A DNA stretch of 64,000 nucleotides, taken from the NCBI RefSeq assembly GCF_001999285.1, contig NZ_MLHN01000014.1, forward strand, positions 30,103-94,102, given 5' to 3'. This document shows, one piece after another, positions 2,770 through 56,760 of this stretch. Position 1 is the stretch's first letter. Each line of letters opens with the position of its first letter. A program made the position numbers and the translations under genes. The notes under the pieces were generated by a model. It did no database searches, was not told the origin of the DNA, and was given only the letters and a program-made list of their open reading frames with translations. The DNA comes from Rodentibacter genomosp. 1 (GTDB lineage Bacteria > Pseudomonadota > Gammaproteobacteria > Enterobacterales > Pasteurellaceae).

Positions 2770-3816
2770 ATGAAAAAATTGACCGCACTTTTCACTTCAA
2801 GTGTATTTTTATTTAGCACCCACAATATCGCAATGGCGAATGACAATACGGTTTATCTCTATACTTGGAGCGAATATGTGCCGGAAGGTTTACTGGACAA
2901 CTTTACCAAGGAAACCGGGATTAAAGTGATTGTTTCCAGTTTGGAATCAAATGAGACCATGTACGCTAAACTGAAAACTCAGGGTGAAAACGGTGGCTAT
3001 GATGTGATTGCCCCCACTAGCTATTTTGTCTCCAAAATGATTCGGGAAGATATGCTAAAGGCATTAGATCACGAAAAACTGCCCGTTATCAAAGAATTAG
3101 ATCCGAATATGCTGGATAAACCTTTTGATAAAGGCAACAAATATTCCTTACCTCAATTATTTGGGGCGACCGGTATTGCTTATAACACGGATACGCAAAA
3201 TCCCGCCCAATTTCAATCTTGGGGCGATCTGTGGAAACCAGAATTTAAGGGGCGTCTGCAAATGTTGGATGATCCAAGAGAATTGTTCAATATTGCCCTG
3301 TTAAAAATGAACAAAGACCCGAATACGCAAGATCCAAAAGTCTTGGAAGAGGCTTATCAAGAATTGCTTAAATTACGTGGCAATATTTTGGCATTTAATT
3401 CGGATAACCCATCCAGCAGCTTTATTTCAGGTGAAACAGAAGTCGGTTTATTATGGAATGGCTCCGTTCGCATTGCCAAAAACGAAGGGGCAAAAATTGA
3501 TATGCAGTATCCGAAAGAAGGCACAATGCTTTGGATTGATAATTTGGCCATTCCGAAAACCGCCAAAAATGTGGAAAGCGCACACAAGCTGATTAATTAT
3601 CTATTGAGTGCGGATGTGGCAGAAAAACTGACTTTACAAATCGGCTATCCCACTTCTAATCTCAAGGCATTAAAACGTTTGCCAAAAGAATTAACGGATG
3701 ATCGTGCAACCTTTATCACTCAAGACATGATCGATAGAAGCCAATGGCAACTTGATGTGGATGATGCCATTGAGCTGTATGATAGCTATTATCAAAAATT
3801 AAAAGCCGCTCAATAA
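2770..3816 (+). CDS. potD: Spermidine/putrescine-binding periplasmic protein
   Basis: 348 residues with a signal peptide (about residues 1-23, cleavage near AMA-ND) followed by VYLYTWSEYVPEGLLDNFTKETG, the characteristic opening of PotD, the substrate-binding partner of the PotABC polyamine importer. Full family length. The polar residues of the polyamine site are plausible (ETMYAKL, APTSYFV, WNGSVRIA). No potABC genes are next to it, so it acts as an orphan binding protein with a permease encoded elsewhere. The ribosome site AAGGAG lies at 2755. An uptake signal sits inside the signal-peptide codons (KLTALF). A strong terminator follows at 3831. Confidence 0.93.
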   Translation: MKKLTALFTSSVFLFSTHNIAMANDNTVYLYTWSEYVPEGLLDNFTKETGIKVIVSSLESNETMYAKLKTQGENGGYDVIAPTSYFVSKMIREDMLKALDHEKLPVIKELDPNMLDKPFDKGNKYSLPQLFGATGIAYNTDTQNPAQFQSWGDLWKPEFKGRLQMLDDPRELFNIALLKMNKDPNTQDPKVLEEAYQELLKLRGNILAFNSDNPSSSFISGETEVGLLWNGSVRIAKNEGAKIDMQYPKEGTMLWIDNLAIPKTAKNVESAHKLINYLLSADVAEKLTLQIGYPTSNLKALKRLPKELTDDRATFITQDMIDRSQWQLDVDDAIELYDSYYQKLKAAQ

Positions 3817-5191: not shown

Positions 5192-5428
5192 TTAATTAGT
5201 ATTACTAAGTAAATATGCTTGTAGTGTGCTAATAGAATGCGAAGAAACGCACTTACAAGTGGAAGAACGCTCTTCAATCCATTCATCAATTTCTTCTTCT
5301 AACCACGCAACCGCCCTTACTGAAAGCTTTTTTGGCTGTGGAAAATCAGATGATTTGATCAAGCGATAGATTGTCGATTTTGATAACGTCGTTTTTGCCA
5401 TTACCTGGCGAAGTTTTATAAGTTGCAT
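5192..5428 (-). CDS. AlpA-family regulator (MerR-like helix-turn-helix)
   Basis: 78 residues from the ATG at 5428 (MQLIKLRQVMAKTTLSKS), which has GAGGT five bases upstream; an alternative start lies 21 bases earlier. RQVMAKTTLSKSTIYRLIKSSDFPQP, then VAWLEEEIDEWIEER, is the standard AlpA arrangement: HTH followed by a Trp-rich helix. AlpA proteins activate excision or early genes in P4-like elements and in Gram-negative phage-inducible islands. It heads a leftward operon with rep and is divergent from the gene at 5633, sharing an intergenic region with three palindromes. Confidence 0.88.
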   Translation of the reverse strand: MQLIKLRQVMAKTTLSKSTIYRLIKSSDFPQPKKLSVRAVAWLEEEIDEWIEERSSTCKCVSSHSISTLQAYLLSNTN

Positions 5429-5538
5429 AGCTACCTCGATAGTCATCAAAAGGCGGAATTACCTTTTGTCGAGATGCATTTACAAATATGGGAAAATCAG
5501 TCTGAATTAGCTGAATTTTGGCTTTTTTATGAGTTAAA

Positions 5539-7002: not shown

Positions 7003-7905
7003 ATGCCGTCTCAATCACAGGTTATCGATGCTTTCTATCGTTTGTATCAGGCTTATCATAATAAGCGGTTTACAAAGACGCTCAATTTTACTGAAAAGAC
7101 AGAGCGTGAATTACTCCCGTTAGTAAGAAATTACCTATTTGGTTATTTTGATCATCTTGAACCGGAAGCTGGGGTACAGATTACTACAAATGTTCAAGGT
7201 CGCTTTGATTTCCTCATTAATAATATCGCGGTTGAATTTGCAATCAGATCGGCAAGAAAAGGAGGAAATAACCTTAAAGCTGAAAAGAATGTGGGTGAAA
7301 TTAAAAAATTAATTAGACATCCGGATCATTCTTTAATGATTTTATTTGACTTTAAAAAATCTATTACGGATGAAGAGGTCAACAAAACCCTTGAAGAATA
7401 TAGAAAAATTCCTTCTCTAGGGCGAGGAAATCCTCACAGATATCCATTTACAGTCGCTTACTTTTATCAAGATGAATCGGGGGATCTATCGTATGACACA
7501 AGGAGAATCCGAGTAAAAAGACGACCGATTAGTCTATGTGAAGATAAAGATATTATTGAGCAAATCAACGTTATTAACCAACGAGATTTGACTGCTATAG
7601 AATTTGATTTTAATACTGGAGATTATATTTGTACATACTTGGTTGAAGTGAGGCTGAAAAAAGAGGGAGAATTAACGATTGAATATCAGGATAGTGAAGG
7701 AAATTATCATCAATATAAGGGCTGTGAAACAAAGAATAATACTTATGAGTTAATCTCGGCTGAAAACTCGTTGAATAAAGCCACAGTATCTTTGTCTCTT
7801 GATGAAGAAGATAAAACGTTGACGATTGAAGGGACACTAATAGAAGATGGTTATAAAAAAGAGTGGTTTATCGAAAATAATACTGAAGTAAATAATAAAA
7901 AATAG
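7003..7905 (+). CDS. Unknown protein with possible PD-(D/E)XK-like N-terminal fold
   Basis: 300 residues after a good ribosome site (AAGGGG). Residues 1-190 look mixed alpha/beta and include GRFDFLINNIAVEFAIRS (Asp69, Glu78). That resembles the D...E core strands of restriction-type nucleases, but the catalytic Lys position is not matched (E-F-A), so it may be inactive or a different fold. KNVGEIKKLIRHPDHSLMILFDF would suit the following helix and strand. Residues 200-295 are acidic and beta-rich. It is the first gene of the rightward operon; the FtsK-like gene starts 36 bases later. No close family recognised. Confidence 0.65.
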   Translation: MPSQSQVIDAFYRLYQAYHNKRFTKTLNFTEKTERELLPLVRNYLFGYFDHLEPEAGVQITTNVQGRFDFLINNIAVEFAIRSARKGGNNLKAEKNVGEIKKLIRHPDHSLMILFDFKKSITDEEVNKTLEEYRKIPSLGRGNPHRYPFTVAYFYQDESGDLSYDTRRIRVKRRPISLCEDKDIIEQINVINQRDLTAIEFDFNTGDYICTYLVEVRLKKEGELTIEYQDSEGNYHQYKGCETKNNTYELISAENSLNKATVSLSLDEEDKTLTIEGTLIEDGYKKEWFIENNTEVNNKK

Positions 7906-7941: not shown

Positions 7942-10080
7942 ATGATGAGTAAAACAAACGATGATAGTTCATTAAAAAATGAACAAATTATCCAAAAATT
8001 AGAAGAATTTTATAAAGAGTATAATATCAATATAAAATTTAAATCAGTAACTACTTATTTTCACTTTAATTCTTACAATTTTGAAATTAAAAAAAGTCAG
8101 GATTTTTCAACAATAAAATCCTTAGAGAAAAAATTATATAAAGCATTTCAATTACCTTCAATCTTGATTACACAACAAGAAAGTACTGATGTTTCCTTTC
8201 AAATCATTCATCAAGATAGAAAACCTTATGTATTTTTAGAGGCGGTTCAAAGTGAAGCTTTCCAAAATCCAAAAGATATGCAACTTCCTTTCTTGTTAGG
8301 AGAAAGAAATGGAGCATTCGTAGCAAATTTGGCTAAATTTCCTCATTTGTTAATTAGTGGATGTGTAGGTGCGGGAAAATCAATGTTTATTCATAATTTA
8401 ATATTAAGCCTGCTACATCATCAATCGCCAGAAAAATTAAAATTGATCTTAGTTGATCCTAAAGTAGTAGAATTAAGTATATATAATGACATTCCCCATT
8501 TGCTGACACCCGTGGTTACCGATATGAAAAAAGCGGCAAATGCCTTACGTTGGTGTGTGGATGAAATGGAACGCCGTTATCAATTACTTTCTGCTTTGCA
8601 GGTGCGTAATATTGAAGGCTTTAATGAGAAAATTGATGAATATGAAGGAATGGGAATGCCGATTCCAAATCCGATTTGGAAACAGGATGATACTTCGGAT
8701 CAAATGCCGCCGGCATTGAAAAAATTTAGCTATATCGTGGTGATTTTGGATGAATTTGCTGATCTTGTGATGGTTGCCAGCAAGCAAATTGAAGAGTTAA
8801 TCGCCCGACTTGCACAAAAAGCACGTGCGGTTGGTATTCACCTTATTTTGGCAACGCAACGCCCTTCCGGTGATGTGATTACGAAGCTGATTAAAGCCAA
8901 TATTCCAAGTCGTATTGCATTTACGGTTACTTCGGCAACTGATTCTAGAATCATTATAGATTGTAATGACGCTGAATGTTTGTGTGGTAGAGGTGATATG
9001 TTGGTTTCTCTACCTGGAAATTACGCTCCCCTTAGAGTTCAAGCACCTTTCATTAATGATGATGATATTTCACTTTTTACAGAAAGGTTACGTTTGCAAG
9101 GAAAACCGAAATATATTGATTTTCCTAAAGATTTTTCTAAAAGAATGGAAGAAAAACCGAAATATGATCCAATAATTCCCGATGTATTAAAATATATTCT
9201 TGATAGCCAAAATACCTCGATATCTGCGATTCTACGTCAATTTCATATCGGTTTTAATCGAGCTGCAAGAATTTTAGATTCTTTGGAAGATAAAGGTTTT
9301 ATTTCTCCTTCTTATAACAACAAACGGAAAATCTTAATCAATGAATTTAGTGAGGCAGACTTACCACAAGAAATACTAGAGAGTAAACTACCGGAAGTTG
9401 TAGAAAATAAGCCTAGTTTACAAATAGGATTAATTACATTTGGAAAGTTTTCAGATAGCTTAATAAATAATATTGATGAATATAACATCACTTATTATTC
9501 TTATGGCGACATTGATTATAATGCTATAGTTAATATGGATGTTTTTATATTAGTTGGTGATATAAATGAGAAAATATTAACAAATAAAAAGTTAGAAAAA
9601 ATAATAGAAAATAATACCGAATTAATTACTTTTATTATATCTTTCAATAAAGATAAGGATTTTTTAGATAAATTTAATATTCCATATTTTATAGGAGATG
9701 AAAATAATTCTGATAAGATTAATGAGTTAATAAGATCTTTATGCAATATGTCAGTTAATCCAGGGATGATTAATGTGGATATTGTTGATATTAGTTTAGC
9801 TTTTTCAGATTGTAGAAATGTGAAGTATTTATGTGTAAAAGATAGCACCAAAGAATATCGTCATAATATAAAAAATTATTTCAATAAATCAAATAAAAAG
9901 ATATTATCTTCATTAGTGAATATTGAATCTGACTTTAGTTTATCTTTTGATATTATGTGTTCGATTACGGATTGGATTGCGGAGCAAGTTAATGAAAATG
10001 CAAGGATTGTCTGTGGAACATCATTGAATTTTGCTCTTAAGGATGAATTAAAAATTCATATTTTTTATGCAGAAGAATAA
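7942..10080 (+). CDS. FtsK-type DNA translocase fused to an FtsZ-like C-terminal domain
   Basis: 712 residues with no membrane segment. Residues 1-130 resemble the FtsK alpha domain (RKPYVFLEAVQSEAFQNP). The RecA-like motor carries Walker A GCVGAGKS (140-147), Walker B IVVILDEFADL (about 264-274) and LILATQRPSGDVITKLIKAN. At 425-460 is the FtsK gamma winged helix (SAILRQFHIGFNRAARILDS), which in FtsK reads oriented DNA. From about 493 the protein departs from FtsK: GMINVDIVDI (608) and ARIVCGTSLNFALKDELKI (687) match the second domain of FtsZ (GLMNVDFADV; ATVVIGTSLDPDMNDELRV). The preceding segment (493-600) may be a shrunken GTPase half, without the tubulin GGGTGTG loop. Weak ribosome site. 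Likely a soluble dsDNA pump of the element. Confidence 0.8.
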   Translation: MMSKTNDDSSLKNEQIIQKLEEFYKEYNINIKFKSVTTYFHFNSYNFEIKKSQDFSTIKSLEKKLYKAFQLPSILITQQESTDVSFQIIHQDRKPYVFLEAVQSEAFQNPKDMQLPFLLGERNGAFVANLAKFPHLLISGCVGAGKSMFIHNLILSLLHHQSPEKLKLILVDPKVVELSIYNDIPHLLTPVVTDMKKAANALRWCVDEMERRYQLLSALQVRNIEGFNEKIDEYEGMGMPIPNPIWKQDDTSDQMPPALKKFSYIVVILDEFADLVMVASKQIEELIARLAQKARAVGIHLILATQRPSGDVITKLIKANIPSRIAFTVTSATDSRIIIDCNDAECLCGRGDMLVSLPGNYAPLRVQAPFINDDDISLFTERLRLQGKPKYIDFPKDFSKRMEEKPKYDPIIPDVLKYILDSQNTSISAILRQFHIGFNRAARILDSLEDKGFISPSYNNKRKILINEFSEADLPQEILESKLPEVVENKPSLQIGLITFGKFSDSLINNIDEYNITYYSYGDIDYNAIVNMDVFILVGDINEKILTNKKLEKIIENNTELITFIISFNKDKDFLDKFNIPYFIGDENNSDKINELIRSLCNMSVNPGMINVDIVDISLAFSDCRNVKYLCVKDSTKEYRHNIKNYFNKSNKKILSSLVNIESDFSLSFDIMCSITDWIAEQVNENARIVCGTSLNFALKDELKIHIFYAEE

Positions 10081-10237: not shown

Positions 10238-10333
10238 AGACCGGCTCTTTGAGCTTAATTATCCATCGTTTCTTATTGTTAATGGCTTTTTTCTCTTATT
10301 ACTCATAGAATAGACCCCTAAAAGGCAAGACAT
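10238..10333 (-). pseudogene. Relic of an integrase 5' end (element 1)
   Basis: On the minus strand, ATGAGTAATAAGAGAAAAAA at 10308 followed by GCCATTAACAATAAGAAACG parallels the start of the integrase at 12044 (ATGAGTAATAGTATAAAAAA, then GCCATTAACGACAAAAACTA). The likeness continues into AAGCTCAAAGAGCC versus AAGCCCAAAGATCC. Upstream, CCTTTTAGGGGTCTATTCT parallels ACTTTTAAGGAGATATTTT. Only the first 12 or so codons are readable (MSNKRKKPLTIRNDG, then stop). It shows that a second copy of the integrase once stood here. Confidence 0.75.
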
Positions 10334-10390
10334 AGTTCGGCTTTATCAATATTTAAGCATTAAAATGACTTTGAGATTAAGAGAAAGAAA

Positions 10391-10426
10391 GTGAATTTAA
10401 ATGAAACATTATCCCAACACACCTGA
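10391..10426 (+). other. Internal attachment junction with old replacement mutS start
   Basis: GTG at 10391 opens MNLNETLSQHT and then a stop. Codon by codon this parallels the present mutS start at 12219 ([11 protein letters not shown]), with synonymous third-base differences (AAT/AAC, TCC/TCA, CAC/CAT). AAGAGAAAG upstream would be its ribosome site. It marks where element 1 once abutted mutS, before element 2 came to lie between them. The Ser at codon 8 (10412) is at the same register as in the other two junctions. Confidence 0.75.
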
Positions 10427-10754
10427 TTTAACAAGAATCCACAGTGCTTTTGTCAGTGATGAAGAAATTATGGCTATCACAGATTTCCTGCGTATGTTTG
10501 GACTACCTCGATATCAAGAAGATATTTTTACTGGTGAAACATTGTCATTATTAAATGACGAACTGGATCCTTTATTTGATAAAGTACGCAAATTCGTGAT
10601 TAAAACAGAAACTACTTCAATCTCGGCAATTATACGCAAGTTTAGCATTGGTTTTAATCGTGCTGCTAATATTATGGCGCAGCTTGAAGCAGAAGGGGTT
10701 ATATCAGAACCATTAAAATCGGGAAAACGAGAGTTACTCATATCAAAAAATTAA
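10401..10754 (+). pseudogene. FtsK C-terminal fragment (end of motor plus gamma domain)
   Basis: The open frame reads 117 residues. The first six or so (MKHYPN) come from an out-of-frame reading of the attachment junction. From TPDLTRIHSAFVSDEEIM onward it matches the extreme end of the FtsK motor, and DPLFDKVRKFV...SAIIRKFSIGFNRAANIMAQ is a complete gamma winged helix. It is therefore probably the 3' end of a second ftsK-like gene whose front was deleted when element 2 collapsed. It lacks the FtsZ-like extension of the 7942 protein. If translated, it could still bind DNA as a gamma-only protein. Confidence 0.7.
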
Positions 10755-10774
10755 AGTAATAGGCAGGAAACTGC

Positions 10775-12044
10775 CTATTTCTCAATTACTAAATCATCTA
10801 AATAATCAGCCCATTTCTGTAACCAAATACGGCATTCTTTGTCATAACTATGTAAATTATAAGTTCCTTCAATTCCTTTTTTTGAATGTCCTAAAATAGC
10901 CTCTCCAACTTCATTTGGACAGCCTAAACGGGCTAAGCCGGTACGAACCGTTCTGCGTAGATCGTGTGGAGACCAATGTTCAATATCTAACATTAAGCCA
11001 TTTTTTCTTAAAGCCCACATTCTTTCTGTTAGATACTTTTGTTGTATTGGCTTTTCTTGTAATCTCATTTGAAATAGGTATCTCGTTGAATGATCAAATG
11101 TTTTTATGAGTTCTATTGCTTGTGTAGAAAGTTGGACATAGCGGGAAGTACCTGTTTTTGTTTCTCTCAAGAAAATTGTTTTCATTTCTAAATCAATATC
11201 ATCCCACTCTATTGTACAAATTTCTCCTGTTCGGCATCCGGTGAGTAATGTAAGCAAAAATACATTTTGGATTTTTTCAGTTAAGCGAGATTTTTTTATC
11301 CATTCTAAGAATATGCTAAGCTCTCTATGATCAAATGCTCGCGTTCCCCGATTATTAGTTAGCTTAACAGTACTCATTTTTAACGTTTCTTTTGCTAAAA
11401 GTGCAGGATTAACAAAATTTTCATCAAACTTGTCTAATCCTATTGCAAAACGGTAAGCTAAAGCCCACTCACGAAGAACGTTACCCGCTTGAACATTAGC
11501 TCCTCTTTCATTTACAATCTTCAAGATATGCTCGGCAATTTCTTTTCTAGTTATAGAAGACGCTAACCTATTACCAAAAGGAATGACAACATCATTATGT
11601 AATGTTCGACGAACTTCATCTGTCCTTTAGGTTTTCTTGCACCGACTATCAAACGACCATTTTCACTATAGTGATCTTCAATATACTGTGATAGATAGAG
11701 TTCAATAAGATCTTTAACATAGAACGGTTTTTTTGATTAGCTTGTTCTTTCTTGTATTTTTTTAGTTCTGATGCGGGACAGCGACCTGCAAGTCGAATAT
11801 GTTTCAATTCTTTAAGCTGCTTTCTCGCTTCTGCTAAACTGACAGCAGGAAATGAGCCAATTTTTACTTGAGTAAGTTTTTGAGTTATCGGGCTTGAATA
11901 ACGATAGAAAAAGGTTTTCAGCCCTGTCTTGCCACAGGTAACTCTTAGACCTGAGTATTCTCCAATATCAGCTTTATCGGGATCTTTGGGCTTCATCGCC
12001 TCAATAGTTTTTGTCGTTAATGGCTTTTTTATACTATTACTCAT
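10775..12044 (-). pseudogene. int: Tyrosine recombinase (integrase), two frameshifts
   Basis: The start at 12044 (MSNSIKKPLTTKTIEAMKPKD) has the N-terminal DUF4102/arm-binding domain of P4-like integrases. Frame breaks occur in an A7 run near 11728-11734 and near 11620-11628 (CCTAAAGGACAG). One added base at each restores YVKDLIELYLSQYIEDHYSE and TDEVRRTLHNDVVIPFGN. The catalytic domain (frame 10775-11524) keeps TGCRTGE (Arg), HDLRRT (His-x-x-Arg), LGHS (His) and GTYN (nucleophile Tyr). It faces away from mutS and its 5' end is next to the right junction, the usual position. Either decayed or two homopolymer sequencing errors. Confidence 0.85.
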
Positions 12045-12218
12045 AAAATATCTCCTTAAAAGTGCTTATATATTATACTATAGGTTTATAGGAGCCTACA
12101 AATAAACCTATATTTAAGTATGGGTTTTTATAAGACTTTATGAAACTTTGATAAACTTTATGAAACGATGAACTTATTTAAAATCATTTAATATCAATAA
12201 CTTAATTAATTTAATAAT
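12045..12218. promoter_or_regulatory. Right-end region: integrase operator, arm-like repeats, new mutS promoter
   Basis: From the integrase start: AAGGAGATAT ribosome site, then an inverted repeat ATAGGTTTAT/ATAAACCTAT (12080-12089 and 12102-12111), then two direct copies of ACTTTATGAAAC (12135-12146 and 12155-12166) 20 bases apart, as expected for integrase or excisionase arm sites. Any promoter for the present mutS must lie here; a weak candidate is TTTATG about 12157 with TAAAAT near 12179. No ribosome site precedes the mutS ATG at 12219. Confidence 0.55.
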
Positions 12219-14804
12219 ATGAATTTAAACGAAAAAATGTCACAACATACCCCAATGATGCAGCAATATCTCAAACTCAAAGCGGAAAATCCGGATATTT
12301 TGCTGTTTTATCGTATGGGGGATTTTTATGAGCTGTTTTATGATGATGCGAAAAAAGCGGCGGCATTATTGGATATCTCCCTAACCAAGCGGGGACAATC
12401 TGCGGGGCTGCCCATTCCGATGGCAGGGGTGCCTTATCATGCCATAGAAGGTTATTTAGCAAAATTGGTTCAGTTGGGTGAGTCTGTCGCTATTTGTGAG
12501 CAGGTGGGGGATCCGGCAACAAGCAAAGGGCCGGTAGAACGTCAAATTGTACGGATTGTAACGCCAGGCACAGTGAGTGATGAAGCCTTGTTACCGGAAC
12601 GCCAAGACAATTTAATTGCTGCTATCTATCAAGAAAAAGATCAATTTGGTTTAGCCACATTAGATATGACATCCGGCCTTTTTCAACTGTGCGAGCCTGA
12701 AAATAAAGAAACGCTACGTGCGGAATTACAACGCATTGCTCCGGTGGAGTTGCTCTATTGCGAAGATTTCAGCGAAATGGCAATCATTGAACATTGTAAA
12801 GGATTACGCCGTCGCCCCATTTGGGAATTTGAACTTGGTACGGCGATTAGCCAGCTCAACCGTCAATTCGGCACGAAAGATTTGCGTGCCTTTGGCGTAG
12901 AAAAATCACCACTTGGACTAAGTGCAGTGGGCTGTTTGTTGCAATATGCGAAAGAAACTCAACGTACCGCCTTACCGCATATTAACAGCATTAGTGTGAT
13001 TCAAAATCAAGATTATATTCAACTGGATGCCGCTACAAGACGCAATTTAGAACTCACTCAAAATCTTGCCGGTGGCACAGAGAATACGCTTGCTTCAGTG
13101 TTGGATAAATGTGTCACCCCAATGGGAAGCCGTTTGCTCAAACGTTGGATTCATCAACCTATTCGGGATACCCAAAAACTTCGCCAACGCCAACAGGCGA
13201 TTGCAGAAATTTTAAATTTTGATCTAGTAGATGAATTACAACCCTATTTAAAACAAGTGGGGGATATGGAACGTATTTTGGCTCGAGTGGCATTGCGTTC
13301 GGCACGTCCACGGGATCTCACCCGTTTGCGTACTGCATTGGAGCAACTCCCCGAATTACAAGCGATCATTCAGCAAAAAACACCGCCATTTTTGACCGCA
13401 CTTTTTACTCAGATCGCAGATTTTAGTGAACAGTGTGATCTCCTACAACGTGCCATTATTGACTTGCCACCACTTTTGATTCGTGATGGTGGGGTGATTG
13501 CACAAGGATACAATGAAGAATTGGACGAATGGCGAACCCTTTCTGATGGTGCAACTCAATATTTAGAGAATCTAGAAAAACGAGAGCGGGACAATACTGG
13601 GATCGATACCTTAAAAATCGGTTTTAATGCCGTTCACGGTTATTATATTCAAATTAGCCAAGGGCAAGCTCATAAAGCACCGATTCATTATGTTCGCCGC
13701 CAAACCTTAAAAAATGCGGAACGCTACATCATTCCGGAACTGAAGGAATATGAAGATAAAGTGCTGAAATCCAAAGGGGCAGCGTTGGCGTTGGAAAAAC
13801 AGCTTTACGAGGAATTATTCGATTTACTGCTCCCACATTTAGGCGCTTTACAACTGGCAAGCCTTGCCTTATCGGAATTAGATGTATTAGTGAATTTGGC
13901 GGAACGTGCAGACCGATTAAACTATGTGATGCCTACATTCTGTGATGAAATCAGTATGACGATTGAAAACGGCCGTCATCCGGTGGTGGAACAAGTGCTT
14001 AAAGAGCCGTTTATCGCCAATCCGGTTGAACTCAATAAAGATCGTCATTTACTCATCATTACCGGCCCTAATATGGGGGGGAAAAGTACTTATATGCGTC
14101 AAACCGCCTTGATTGCGTTAATGGCGTATATGGGAAGTTTTGTTCCGGCAGATCAGGCAAAAATTGGGCCGATTGACCGCATTTTCACCCGTATCGGTGC
14201 CTCTGATGATCTTGCCTCCGGTCGTTCAACCTTTATGGTAGAAATGACGGAAATGGCGAATATTCTCCATCAAGCCAGCGCACAAAGTTTGGTACTAATT
14301 GATGAAATTGGACGAGGCACTTCTACCTATGATGGGCTTTCCCTTGCTTGGGCATGTGCAGAATGGCTGGCGAAAAATATCCGTTCGCTCACCTTATTTG
14401 CCACCCATTATTTTGAATTAACTGCTTTGCCGGAACAATTTGCAGGCATTGTGAACGTGCATTTAGATGCCCTTGAGCATAATAACACCATTGCTTTTAT
14501 GCACAGTGTACAAGAAGGGGCGGCAAGCAAAAGTTATGGTTTAGCGGTTGCCGCCTTAGCCGGGGTACCGCAACAAGTCATTAAACTGGCGAAGCAAAAA
14601 TTGACACAATTAGAAAAAATATCGGGTCATGCTGCCGATCAACAAATTCAAGCTTTGCGAGAAGCTCATCAACACCAGGGAGAGCTTGCCTTTGAACAAG
14701 AAATGGAGGCGTTACGAACAGCAATTGAAAAACTTGATCCTGATGAATTAAGCCCTAAACAGGCATTGGCGTATTTGTATCAACTGAAAAAAATGGTGAA
14801 CTAA
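12219..14804 (+). CDS. mutS: DNA mismatch repair ATPase MutS, N-terminus supplied by the element
   Basis: 861 residues. The mismatch-probing Phe-x-Glu is present (Phe36, Glu38 in MGDFYELF). Walker [14 protein letters not shown] is near residue 616, and the signature/Walker [15 protein letters not shown] near 693. The C-terminal helix-turn-helix region is intact, so the protein looks functional. Residues 1-7 (MNLNEKM) are foreign; the native ones remain at 4022. The replacement keeps length and register exactly (Ser8, Phe36). No clear Shine-Dalgarno precedes 12219 or the second ATG at 12237, and the native promoter is cut off, so expression may be reduced or under element control. Confidence 0.95.
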
Positions 14805-56665: not shown

Positions 56666-56760
56666 TGGCGGAAGGTCATGGGAGTCGAACCCACCCGAGA
56701 ACGCTGGCGTCCTCAACAGGATTTGAAGTCCTGCCACCTCACCGGAGATGACGACCTTCC
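56666..56760 (-). tRNA. selC: tRNA-Sec (anticodon UCA), CCA encoded
   Basis: 95 nucleotides beginning GGAAGGTCGTCATCTCCGGT and ending with GACCTTCC-G-CCA, so the acceptor stem is the elongated eight pairs typical of selenocysteine tRNA. The anticodon loop reads CTTCAAA with TCA at 56724-56726. It has a long variable arm (GAGGACGCCAGCGTTCTC) and GGTTCGACTCC in the T arm. It sits next to selA and selB on the opposite strand. Confidence 0.97.

What the first reader, a model, noticed from the sequence alone, without database searches (positions are those of the whole stretch)
7942..10080. FtsK-type translocase fused to an FtsZ-like domain
Residues 1-490 form a soluble FtsK motor with gamma winged helix. 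Residues 493-712 end with blocks that fit the second (C-terminal) domain of FtsZ: GMINVDIVDI against GLMNVDFADV, and ARIVCGTSLNFALKDELKI against ATVVIGTSLDPDMNDELRV, in the right order and spacing and with LVNIESDFSLSFD between them. The GTP-binding half is shortened and lacks GGGTGTG. A DNA pump that carries a piece of the division ring protein could dock to the divisome, block Z-ring assembly, or time transfer to septation. I do not recognise a described family with this architecture.
Basis: partly seen in the sequence, partly recalled or inferred. Interest (0 to 1): 0.96.

Follow-up and report, generated by a model that had tools for sequence, protein, structure and literature searches.

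The report
FtsK DNA motor fused to half-FtsZ
A gene on what looks like a decayed mobile element in a Pasteurellaceae bacterium encodes a DNA-motor protein (FtsK type) fused to the half of the division-ring protein FtsZ that normally completes a neighbouring FtsZ's GTP-cutting site, and it likely grips the host's division ring from DNA and holds ring assembly back there; related genes that join or swap the same two parts in other genomes suggest an undescribed group of division regulators.

Summary
ORF 7942-10080 (712 aa) has an FtsK motor and gamma winged helix (Pfam E 2.5e-67, 8.8e-17) without FtsK's membrane part. Residues 490-712 match the second half of FtsZ (TIGR00065 E 1.5e-6; host FtsZ 25.9 bits against 5.2 for the best of 2000 shuffles). 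GGGTGTG is gone, but the T7 loop, which completes the next subunit's GTPase site, is kept (N611, D613, D616). No second copy of the full fusion was found. Smaller relatives were: FtsK-gamma joined to an FtsZ half in Lonepinella koalarum and three database clusters, and stand-alone FtsZ halves in other Pasteurellaceae. Across 15 GTPase-less members the only invariant columns are the two T7-loop aspartates. Gamma-only, gamma-LRR, motor-gamma and FtsZ-half genes occur in one kind of PP2C/sirtuin/WYL cluster, though many such clusters hold none. Most likely the FtsZ half docks on GTP-bound FtsZ and the FtsK part puts it on DNA: a DNA-tethered division brake. This function is inferred; the structure model is of low confidence (pLDDT 46) and no experiment exists. 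The gene sits before mutS beside a broken integrase.

The parts
7942..10080 (+). FtsK-gamma-FtsZ-half fusion gene, 712 aa
   Evidence: single open frame; domains
7957..8175 (+). residues 6-78, weak FtsK alpha-domain similarity; no N-terminal membrane part of FtsK
   Evidence: PF17854 16.9 bits, under its cut-off of 22.9
8239..8868 (+). FtsK/SpoIIIE motor, residues 100-309; Walker A GCVGAGKS at 140-147, Walker B VVILDEFAD at 266-274
   Evidence: PF01580 E 2.5e-67; motif positions
8453..8927 (+). segment 80% identical in DNA to the host's chromosomal ftsK; 60-base blocks outside it are 30-68% identical (mosaic gene)
9163..9339 (+). FtsK gamma winged helix, residues 408-466; by spacing, KOPS-reading positions N439, R443, D446 (host FtsK also has Asp at the third)
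   Evidence: PF09397 E 8.8e-17; positions; KOPS residues after PMC2533119 passages
9409..10077 (+). FtsZ-like half, residues 490-712: shortened first domain without GGGTGTG, then FtsZ second domain
   Evidence: TIGR00065 E 1.5e-6, FtsZ_C E 6.8e-5, shuffle control
9772..9789 (+). T7 (synergy) loop N611-V-D613-I-V-D616
   Evidence: alignment with 10 FtsZ and 15 family rows
9907..10065 (+). FtsZ_C core, residues 656-708
   Evidence: PF12327
7003..7905 (+). upstream gene, 300 aa, possibly PD-(D/E)XK nuclease-like; followed by a soluble FtsK gene in two other genomes
   Evidence: DpnII-MboI E 0.046 only; homologues in L009, L010, L011
6527..6895 (-). HTH regulator of the same module
   Evidence: HTH_3 E 1.1e-14; homologues in L009, L011, L046
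6030..6503 (-). element gene, cysteine-peptidase-like by eye (no family match); homologues in related elements
   Evidence: 26-32% identity to L045-L047 proteins
5192..5449 (-). AlpA-type regulator of the element
   Evidence: PF05930 E 1.3e-21
10401..10754 (+). second, truncated FtsK C-terminus with gamma, 117 aa, whose start lies in an imperfect copy of the mutS start
   Evidence: PF09397 E 5.5e-21; repeats
10385..10423 (+). 39-bp imperfect copy of the mutS 5' end (12213-12251): likely attachment remnant
   Evidence: 77% identity
10270..10324 (-). 55-bp imperfect copy of the integrase start: likely remnant of an earlier insertion
   Evidence: 80% identity to 12008-12062
10775..12044 (-). tyrosine integrase broken into two frames (11649-12044 and 10775-11524)
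   Evidence: PF13356 and PF00589 on separate frames; three frames read apart; 61-63% identity to the 437-aa integrase beside mutS in L046
12219..14804 (+). mutS, whose 5' end is the likely insertion site

Best explanation
This gene encodes an FtsK-type motor domain with a gamma winged helix, without FtsK's membrane part, fused to the T7-loop half of FtsZ that has lost the GTP-binding motif, and the protein is predicted to dock through that loop on the GTP-bound face of the host's own FtsZ, so that it likely acts as a DNA-tethered brake on Z-ring assembly. Shown: the fusion, the FtsZ similarity, the missing GTP motif, the T7-loop residues, and relatives with gamma alone fused to an FtsZ half. 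Inferred: (1) the FtsZ half binds FtsZ, because the only invariant columns in the family are the two aspartates that in FtsZ enter the neighbour's GTPase site; (2) it lacks the surface needed to pass the filament on, so it would sequester or cap GTP-FtsZ and may speed its hydrolysis; (3) the FtsK part supplies DNA binding (gamma) and movement (motor), so the block would fall over DNA still lying at the septum or over the element, much as SlmA does by other means; (4) the gamma-only, motor-gamma and FtsZ-half proteins found in one kind of gene cluster in other Pasteurellaceae would be versions of the same control.
For: FtsZ similarity above controls. T7-loop Asp/Asp kept in 15 of 15 GTPase-less rows and in 10 of 10 FtsZ, the only columns invariant in the family; Asn kept in 8 of 15. 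N208, D210 and D213 of S. aureus FtsZ at this loop are needed for assembly, and D210 positions the catalytic water (PMC8936486 passages). Gamma fused to an FtsZ half in L. koalarum and three database clusters of 5, 8 and 49 sequences (FtsZ_C is precomputed for the first cluster only, the others follow by 83% and 49% identity). The KOPS-reading N and R are kept in the window's gamma. In the PP2C/sirtuin/WYL cluster, gamma-mini (L057-L064, L066), gamma-LRR (L056), motor-gamma (L080) and FtsZ-half genes (L025, L026, L041, L043, L044, L069, L070) were found. PP2C occurs in 37 of 140 genomes but in 15 of 16 genomes with gamma-mini or gamma-LRR genes listed, the window's own left out. Purifying selection: gamma-mini dN/dS 0.08-0.33 in 10 pairs; FtsZ-half in one genus 0.28-0.48 in 3 pairs on few changes. 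The four VIA-align rows of 50 with more than 180 aligned residues are all FtsZ.
Against: No binding or phenotype data. AF2 mean pLDDT is 46, below 50 over the second domain; its alignment held one FtsZ (P0004), and the run without an alignment gave 39.8. Foldseek's top rows are Rag and flavodoxin folds, with FtsZ only at rank 50, E 0.034. A profile comparison of the L. koalarum-type set with the window aligned only gamma (72 columns), not the FtsZ halves. The window's half is nearer to FtsZ and to stand-alone halves than to the L. koalarum type, so the two fusions may be independent; tree support is weak. The T7-loop count is partly by selection, since members were found by FtsZ-like profiles, and the 15 rows fall into about 8 groups. 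L042, a longer FtsZ-like protein that keeps part of the GTPase half, has lost the first Asp. Of the 10 FtsZ-half carriers listed, six have PP2C, but only in four (two lineages) is it beside the half. The window's own genome, with its extra gamma at 10401-10754, has no PP2C match. Of 20 loci taken for their PP2C gene, 13 hold none of the parts.
Confidence: 0.4

Rival explanations
1. Integrated decoy: the FtsZ half and gamma are mimics of host division targets, kept as bait for phage proteins that attack FtsZ or FtsK; binding of such a protein would switch on the motor or the partner gene 7003-7905.
For: Sporadic distribution and mobile-element setting; WYL-type regulators and genes that match IetA and SspE/HEC-06 defence models beside some FtsZ halves; fast divergence with the T7 aspartates kept.
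Against: In PADLOC the window protein matches motor-type models, with only a weak Cas9-model match (E 0.03) inside the FtsZ half and a weak CARF one (E 0.026) at gamma; gamma-mini, the L039 fusion and the L026 GTPase half match none. No toxin-like effector was identified; the 7003-7905 nuclease reading rests on E 0.046.
Confidence: 0.2
2. Divisome targeting: the FtsZ half replaces FtsK's membrane N-terminus and only brings the motor to the septum, where it sorts the element or helps Xer recombination.
For: The motor has intact Walker motifs and gamma keeps KOPS positions. Gamma fused to XerC or XerD is enough to activate Xer recombination in E. coli (PMC5052618 passages).
Against: The gamma-FtsZ-half relatives have no motor, so motor delivery cannot be their role. 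The element has its own, broken, tyrosine integrase.
Confidence: 0.2
3. Decay product: a soluble FtsK fused by chance to a degenerate FtsZ remnant that does nothing.
For: The integrase beside it is broken, L010's sister FtsK has lost Walker A and B residues, the G069 FtsZ half aligns through a TAA, and the FtsZ-half DNA is only 23% G+C.
Against: 712 codons stay open; the T7 aspartates are kept while every other column varies; gamma-FtsZ-half clusters stand for 62 database sequences.
Confidence: 0.12
4. Split-FtsZ partner: the half pairs not with FtsZ but with a separate GTPase-half protein, as in the two-gene pair L026:8825-9613 and 7953-8807.
For: These neighbouring genes match FtsZ positions 13-204 (E 3.2e-27) and 203-320 (E 2.1e-17).
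Against: In the window's own genome the only other match to the FtsZ half is host FtsZ; a GTPase-half-only protein was not searched for separately.
Confidence: 0.08

Closest known systems
FtsK/SpoIIIE DNA translocases
   Same: Motor, Walker motifs and gamma winged helix; 53-55% identity to the host FtsK C-terminal part.
   Different: No membrane N-terminus, diverged alpha domain, FtsZ half added after gamma.
FtsZ
   Same: Second domain with T7 loop and GTSL...DEL block.
   Different: No GTP-binding motif, shortened first domain, no C-terminal linker or tail, fused to a motor.
FtsZl1/FtsZl2 families (PMC2875224)
   Same: Derived members of the FtsZ superfamily.
   Different: [quoted passage not shown] here it is the reverse (passages).
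SlmA, DNA-activated FtsZ antagonist (PMC4117426)
   Same: Proposed logic: a DNA-binding protein that antagonises FtsZ assembly.
   Different: SlmA binds the FtsZ C-terminal tail and its own DNA sites (abstract); its fold was not compared here.
MciZ-type FtsZ filament cap (PMC8936486)
   Same: Would act at the longitudinal FtsZ interface.
   Different: MciZ covers the bottom (T7) face of FtsZ (passage); this protein would offer a T7 face of its own and so cover the opposite, GTP face.
FtsK_gamma-bearing small terminases of Bacillus phages Sam46/Sam112 (PMC8190038)
   Same: FtsK gamma moved into another protein.
   Different: Fused to a terminase domain; no FtsZ part mentioned (passages).

Membership tests
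FtsK/SpoIIIE translocase | FtsK_SpoIIIE motor with Walker A and B | tested here: met
   PF01580 227 bits, cut-off 24; motifs at 140 and 266
FtsK/SpoIIIE translocase | gamma winged helix with KOPS-reading residues | tested here: met
   PF09397 61 bits, cut-off 30.6; N439, R443 kept, third position Asp as in host FtsK
FtsK/SpoIIIE translocase | N-terminal membrane domain that joins the divisome | tested here: not met
   the ORF starts in the alpha-like region; the host FtsK frame has about 467 more residues before it
FtsZ | GTPase domain with GGGTGTG | tested here: not met
   no match to the Tubulin Pfam model at E up to 1; motif absent from the translation
FtsZ | T7 loop NxDxxD and second domain | tested here: met
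   N611, D613, D616; TIGR00065 193-320; FtsZ_C is 3.5 bits under Pfam's cut-off
FtsZ | C-terminal linker and conserved tail peptide | tested here: not met
   the protein ends 4 residues after the FtsZ_C match
FtsZl1/FtsZl2 | N-terminal FtsZ-like GTPase domain | tested here: not met
   GTP motif absent; family description from passages
Known anti-phage systems (PADLOC) | match to a system model beyond the generic motor | tested here: inconclusive
   strong matches only to FtsK-like motor models (SspH, mad8); E 0.03 to a Cas9 model within the FtsZ half
DNA-bound FtsZ antagonist (SlmA/Noc-like in action) | DNA binding plus inhibition of FtsZ polymerisation | not testable with these tools
   needs purified protein

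The most novel reading that the evidence does not exclude
Pasteurellaceae carry an undescribed class of division regulators built from captured divisome parts: FtsK motors or gamma DNA readers and GTPase-less FtsZ halves, fused or swapped, in which the FtsZ half offers a T7 loop to GTP-bound FtsZ and so acts as a GTPase-activating, filament-ending cap delivered by a DNA-reading motor.
Probability: 0.35. Interest if true: 0.93.

Novelty: categorically new. Interest (0 to 1): 0.82.

Why it matters
I found no described protein that joins a DNA translocase to a piece of the division ring (full-text searches). If the FtsZ half works as proposed, it is a natural 'GTP-face' cap of FtsZ, the mirror of MciZ-type inhibitors, aimed by a chromosome-reading domain; that would be a direct molecular link between DNA position and Z-ring assembly. 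It also gives ready tools: a 66-aa gamma protein, FtsZ halves of 170-286 aa and natural fusions of the two, which make the question 'can a T7 loop alone trigger FtsZ hydrolysis?' directly testable.

Tried and rejected
Artefact of reading or assembly: rejected as the simple case, because the frame is open throughout and gamma-FtsZ-half fusions recur elsewhere. The full motor fusion itself is known from one assembly only. A scan of viral contigs with the whole protein found nothing; nor did a scan of GTDB r220 contigs with the half (both scans reach close relatives only) or a region search of 5.8 billion proteins. In plasmids 689 records match the whole protein, none over 80% of it. The half alone finds nothing in plasmids or phages.

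Coincidental FtsZ resemblance: rejected by the shuffle control and profiles.

Structure: the single-sequence job gave pLDDT 39.8, and the job with P0001-P0004 gave 46.3. Handing in the single-sequence job in the same turn as the alignment spent one of the two jobs. Foldseek's first rows are unrelated common folds, so the fold search supports the reading only weakly.

Profile comparison of the L. koalarum-type set with the window's gamma-plus-half: only gamma aligned.

Wider spread of FtsZ halves: 394 genomes of the order searched with the L041 half and 369 of the class with the window's half gave, among the listed rows and apart from G069 and the window itself, only hits in frames of 367-457 aa, which I read as FtsZ; the list was cut. 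The profile A4 against 5.8 billion proteins found only P0001-P0004. It did not return the Pasteurellaceae halves it was built from, so that search is insensitive. In one search the list was also cut: G041, G084, G087 and G123 had a second match that I did not see there.

Viral origin of the gamma-FtsZ half or of the 7003 protein: no viral contig found.

The Fisher test for FtsZ-half carriers (8 of 12) includes two genomes, G030 and G041, whose halves I found by looking beside PP2C; I do not use it. Without them it is 6 of 10 (carriers listed, PP2C).
Full report
WHAT IS THERE. ORF 7942-10080 on the + strand encodes 712 residues without interruption. Residues 100-309 are an FtsK/SpoIIIE motor (E 2.5e-67), residues 408-466 an FtsK gamma winged helix (E 8.8e-17), and residues 656-708 match FtsZ_C (E 6.8e-5, 23.5 bits, under Pfam's cut-off of 27). 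TIGR00065 (ftsZ) positions 193-320 match the last 226 residues with E 1.5e-6. All 15 PDB sequences that match at E up to 10 are FtsZ, the best with E 6e-4. In the window's own genome the protein finds the host's FtsZ at E 2e-5 through this segment, and the host's FtsK at 55% identity through the motor. As a control, host FtsZ scores 25.9 bits against the real segment and 5.2 against the best of 2000 shuffles. The certain FtsZ similarity starts at about residue 590; residues 490-590 stand where the GTPase half would be, have no GGGTGTG and no Tubulin match, and are predicted only with low confidence to be a small Rossmann-like domain.

THE T7 LOOP IS KEPT. Host FtsZ N-V-D-F-A-D aligns with window N611-V-D613-I-V-D616. 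In S. aureus FtsZ the equivalents N208, D210 and D213 belong to the T7 loop of the upper subunit. D210 positions the catalytic water for the lower subunit's GTP, and the changes N208L, D210N and D213N each suppress assembly (passages of PMC8936486). The protein has kept the part that acts on a neighbour's GTP and lost its own GTP site.

RELATIVES. No other copy of the whole fusion turned up. A search of 140 genomes of the family with the FtsZ-like segment gave FtsZ genes and also short frames that are not FtsZ; a profile gave more. They are stand-alone FtsZ halves of 209-286 aa (L024, L025, L026, L027, L040, L041, L043, L044); L069 and L070, of 170 and 186 aa, were found later beside PP2C genes. 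One more, L039:6804-7676, is a 290-aa protein with an FtsK gamma domain (E 1.3e-6, 28.4 bits, cut-off 30.6) in front of an FtsZ_C match (E 2.3e-5, 25 bits, cut-off 27). Three protein clusters of 5, 8 and 49 sequences are 96%, 83% and 49% identical to it over 99-100% of its length. The genome is a Lonepinella koalarum assembly (the contig length equals that of G086:C7), so the family is Pasteurellaceae. In an alignment of 15 GTPase-less rows with 10 FtsZ sequences, the only columns invariant in the family are the two T7-loop aspartates, 15 of 15; the asparagine is kept in 8 of 15. The 15 rows fall into about eight groups of near relatives, and all were found by FtsZ-like profiles, so the count overstates independence. 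A sixteenth protein, L042, keeps part of a GTPase half and has lost the first aspartate. In one genus an FtsZ-like protein is split into two neighbouring genes: L026:8825-9613 matches FtsZ positions 13-204 and L026:7953-8807 matches 203-320.

SHARED NEIGHBOURHOOD OF GAMMA AND FtsZ HALVES. A search with the L. koalarum-type protein found many small frames that are FtsK gamma alone. I fetched 11 such loci out of 16 genomes listed. Nine hold an intact gamma mini-gene of 63-97 aa, L056 holds gamma fused to leucine-rich-repeat-like sequence, and in L065 the gamma frame is interrupted. The mini-gene overlaps a sirtuin-type (SirTM-like, name recalled) gene by 4 bases in L057, L059, L060, L061, L062 and L066. 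In most of the loci a PP2C phosphatase, a second sirtuin, a nucleotidase-like gene and a WYL-type regulator (names partly recalled) lie close by. The same kinds of genes surround the FtsZ halves in L025, L026, L041, L043 and, without PP2C, L044. Twenty further loci were taken for their PP2C gene: L069 and L070 have FtsZ halves, L080 has a 388-aa FtsK motor plus gamma, four have gamma mini-genes (L084-L087), and 13 hold none of these parts within the stretch fetched. PP2C relatives are present in 37 of 140 genomes. They are in 15 of the 16 genomes with gamma-mini or gamma-LRR genes listed (one-sided Fisher p 2e-9, not corrected for relatedness); the window's own genome, left out of this count, has none. 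They are in 6 of the 10 FtsZ-half genomes listed, but beside the half only in G005, G006, G007 and G056 (two lineages). Gamma mini-genes evolve under purifying selection (dN/dS 0.08-0.33 in 10 pairs); FtsZ halves of one genus give 0.28-0.48 in 3 pairs on few changes. So gamma, motor-gamma and FtsZ-half genes turn up in one kind of cluster, and gamma and the half are fused in two lineages. The tree puts the window's half apart from the L. koalarum type, with weak support, and a profile comparison of the two aligns gamma only, so the fusions may be independent.

THE ELEMENT. The gene lies between a potD-like gene (name recalled; 2770-3816, 95% identical in a congener) and mutS. Upstream of it are a 300-aa protein (7003-7905; DpnII-MboI at E 0.046 only) and an HTH gene. 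Relatives of the 300-aa protein were found in 3 other genomes of 140 in the family. There the gene is followed by a soluble FtsK without an FtsZ half in L009 (456 aa) and in L010 (388 aa as listed, with Walker A and B residues lost), and stands without FtsK in L011, each time in front of mutS. In another family of the order, L046, a 437-aa integrase 61-63% identical to the window's two integrase pieces sits beside mutS, on an element with HTH, peptidase-like, AlpA and 7003-type genes. The window's integrase is broken into two frames. Imperfect copies of the integrase start (10270-10324) and of the mutS start (10385-10423) point to an earlier insertion at the same site, and a truncated FtsK C-terminus with gamma follows (10401-10754). 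The FtsK part of the fusion is a mosaic: 475 bases are 80% identical to the host's ftsK, while 60-base blocks outside are 30-68% identical.

HOW IT MOST LIKELY WORKS. The T7 loop of FtsZ lies on one face of the subunit, the GTP site on the other. A protein with only the T7 face can join the GTP face of FtsZ but cannot be joined in turn through a GTP face of its own. It would therefore sequester GTP-FtsZ or end filaments, and with both aspartates it might speed hydrolysis. The gamma domain reads polar chromosome sequences in FtsK; N1296, R1300 and E1303 of E. coli FtsK are implicated (passages of PMC2533119). By spacing, the window has N439, R443 and D446, and its host FtsK has Asp at the third place too. 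Together this would make a division brake placed on DNA. SlmA is a known DNA-activated FtsZ antagonist (abstract of PMC4117426). All functional steps are inference. The main rivals are a decoy for phage proteins, mere septum targeting of a motor, and decay.

NOVELTY. Full-text searches listed no description of an FtsK-FtsZ fusion or of GTPase-less FtsZ halves. Those searches cover open-licence PMC papers only, and I saw passages of six papers and the abstract of one. The nearest reported things are FtsZl1, which keeps the other half (passages), and an FtsK_gamma domain in phage terminases (passages). 'Categorically new' refers to the architecture and family; the function is not shown.

Noticed in passing
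L057, L060, L061, L062, L066, L084-L087: 66-75-aa FtsK-gamma mini-proteins, each overlapping a sirtuin-type gene by 4 bases, inside a PP2C/sirtuin/WYL/AAA gene cluster of Pasteurellaceae.
   Followed up: partly
L056:4050-4805: FtsK gamma fused to leucine-rich-repeat-like sequence, beside sirtuin and PP2C genes.
   Followed up: no
L026:7953-9613 and L043:6446-8142: FtsZ-like protein split into two neighbouring genes at the T7 boundary; the GTPase half keeps GGGNGTG.
   Followed up: partly
L042:7661-8551: Longer degenerate FtsZ paralogue (296 aa) with GMGGQFGS in place of the GTP motif and one T7 aspartate lost.
   Followed up: no
L010:8149-9315: Soluble FtsK whose Walker A and Walker B Asp are lost, a likely dead motor that keeps gamma.
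   Followed up: no
window 10270-12251: Two imperfect repeats suggest two successive insertions at the mutS 5' end.
   Followed up: partly
window 8453-8927: FtsK segment 80% identical to host ftsK inside a much more diverged gene: mosaic or gene conversion.
   Followed up: partly
L011:6897-10787: Genes downstream of mutS that look like a type I-F CRISPR set (recalled by eye, not searched).
   Followed up: no
G163, G235, G297 and other genomes of one genus in another family (g67): Two FtsZ-type matches per genome at E 1e-3, possible second FtsZ.
   Followed up: no
window 56666-56760: tRNA-SeC gene.
   Followed up: no
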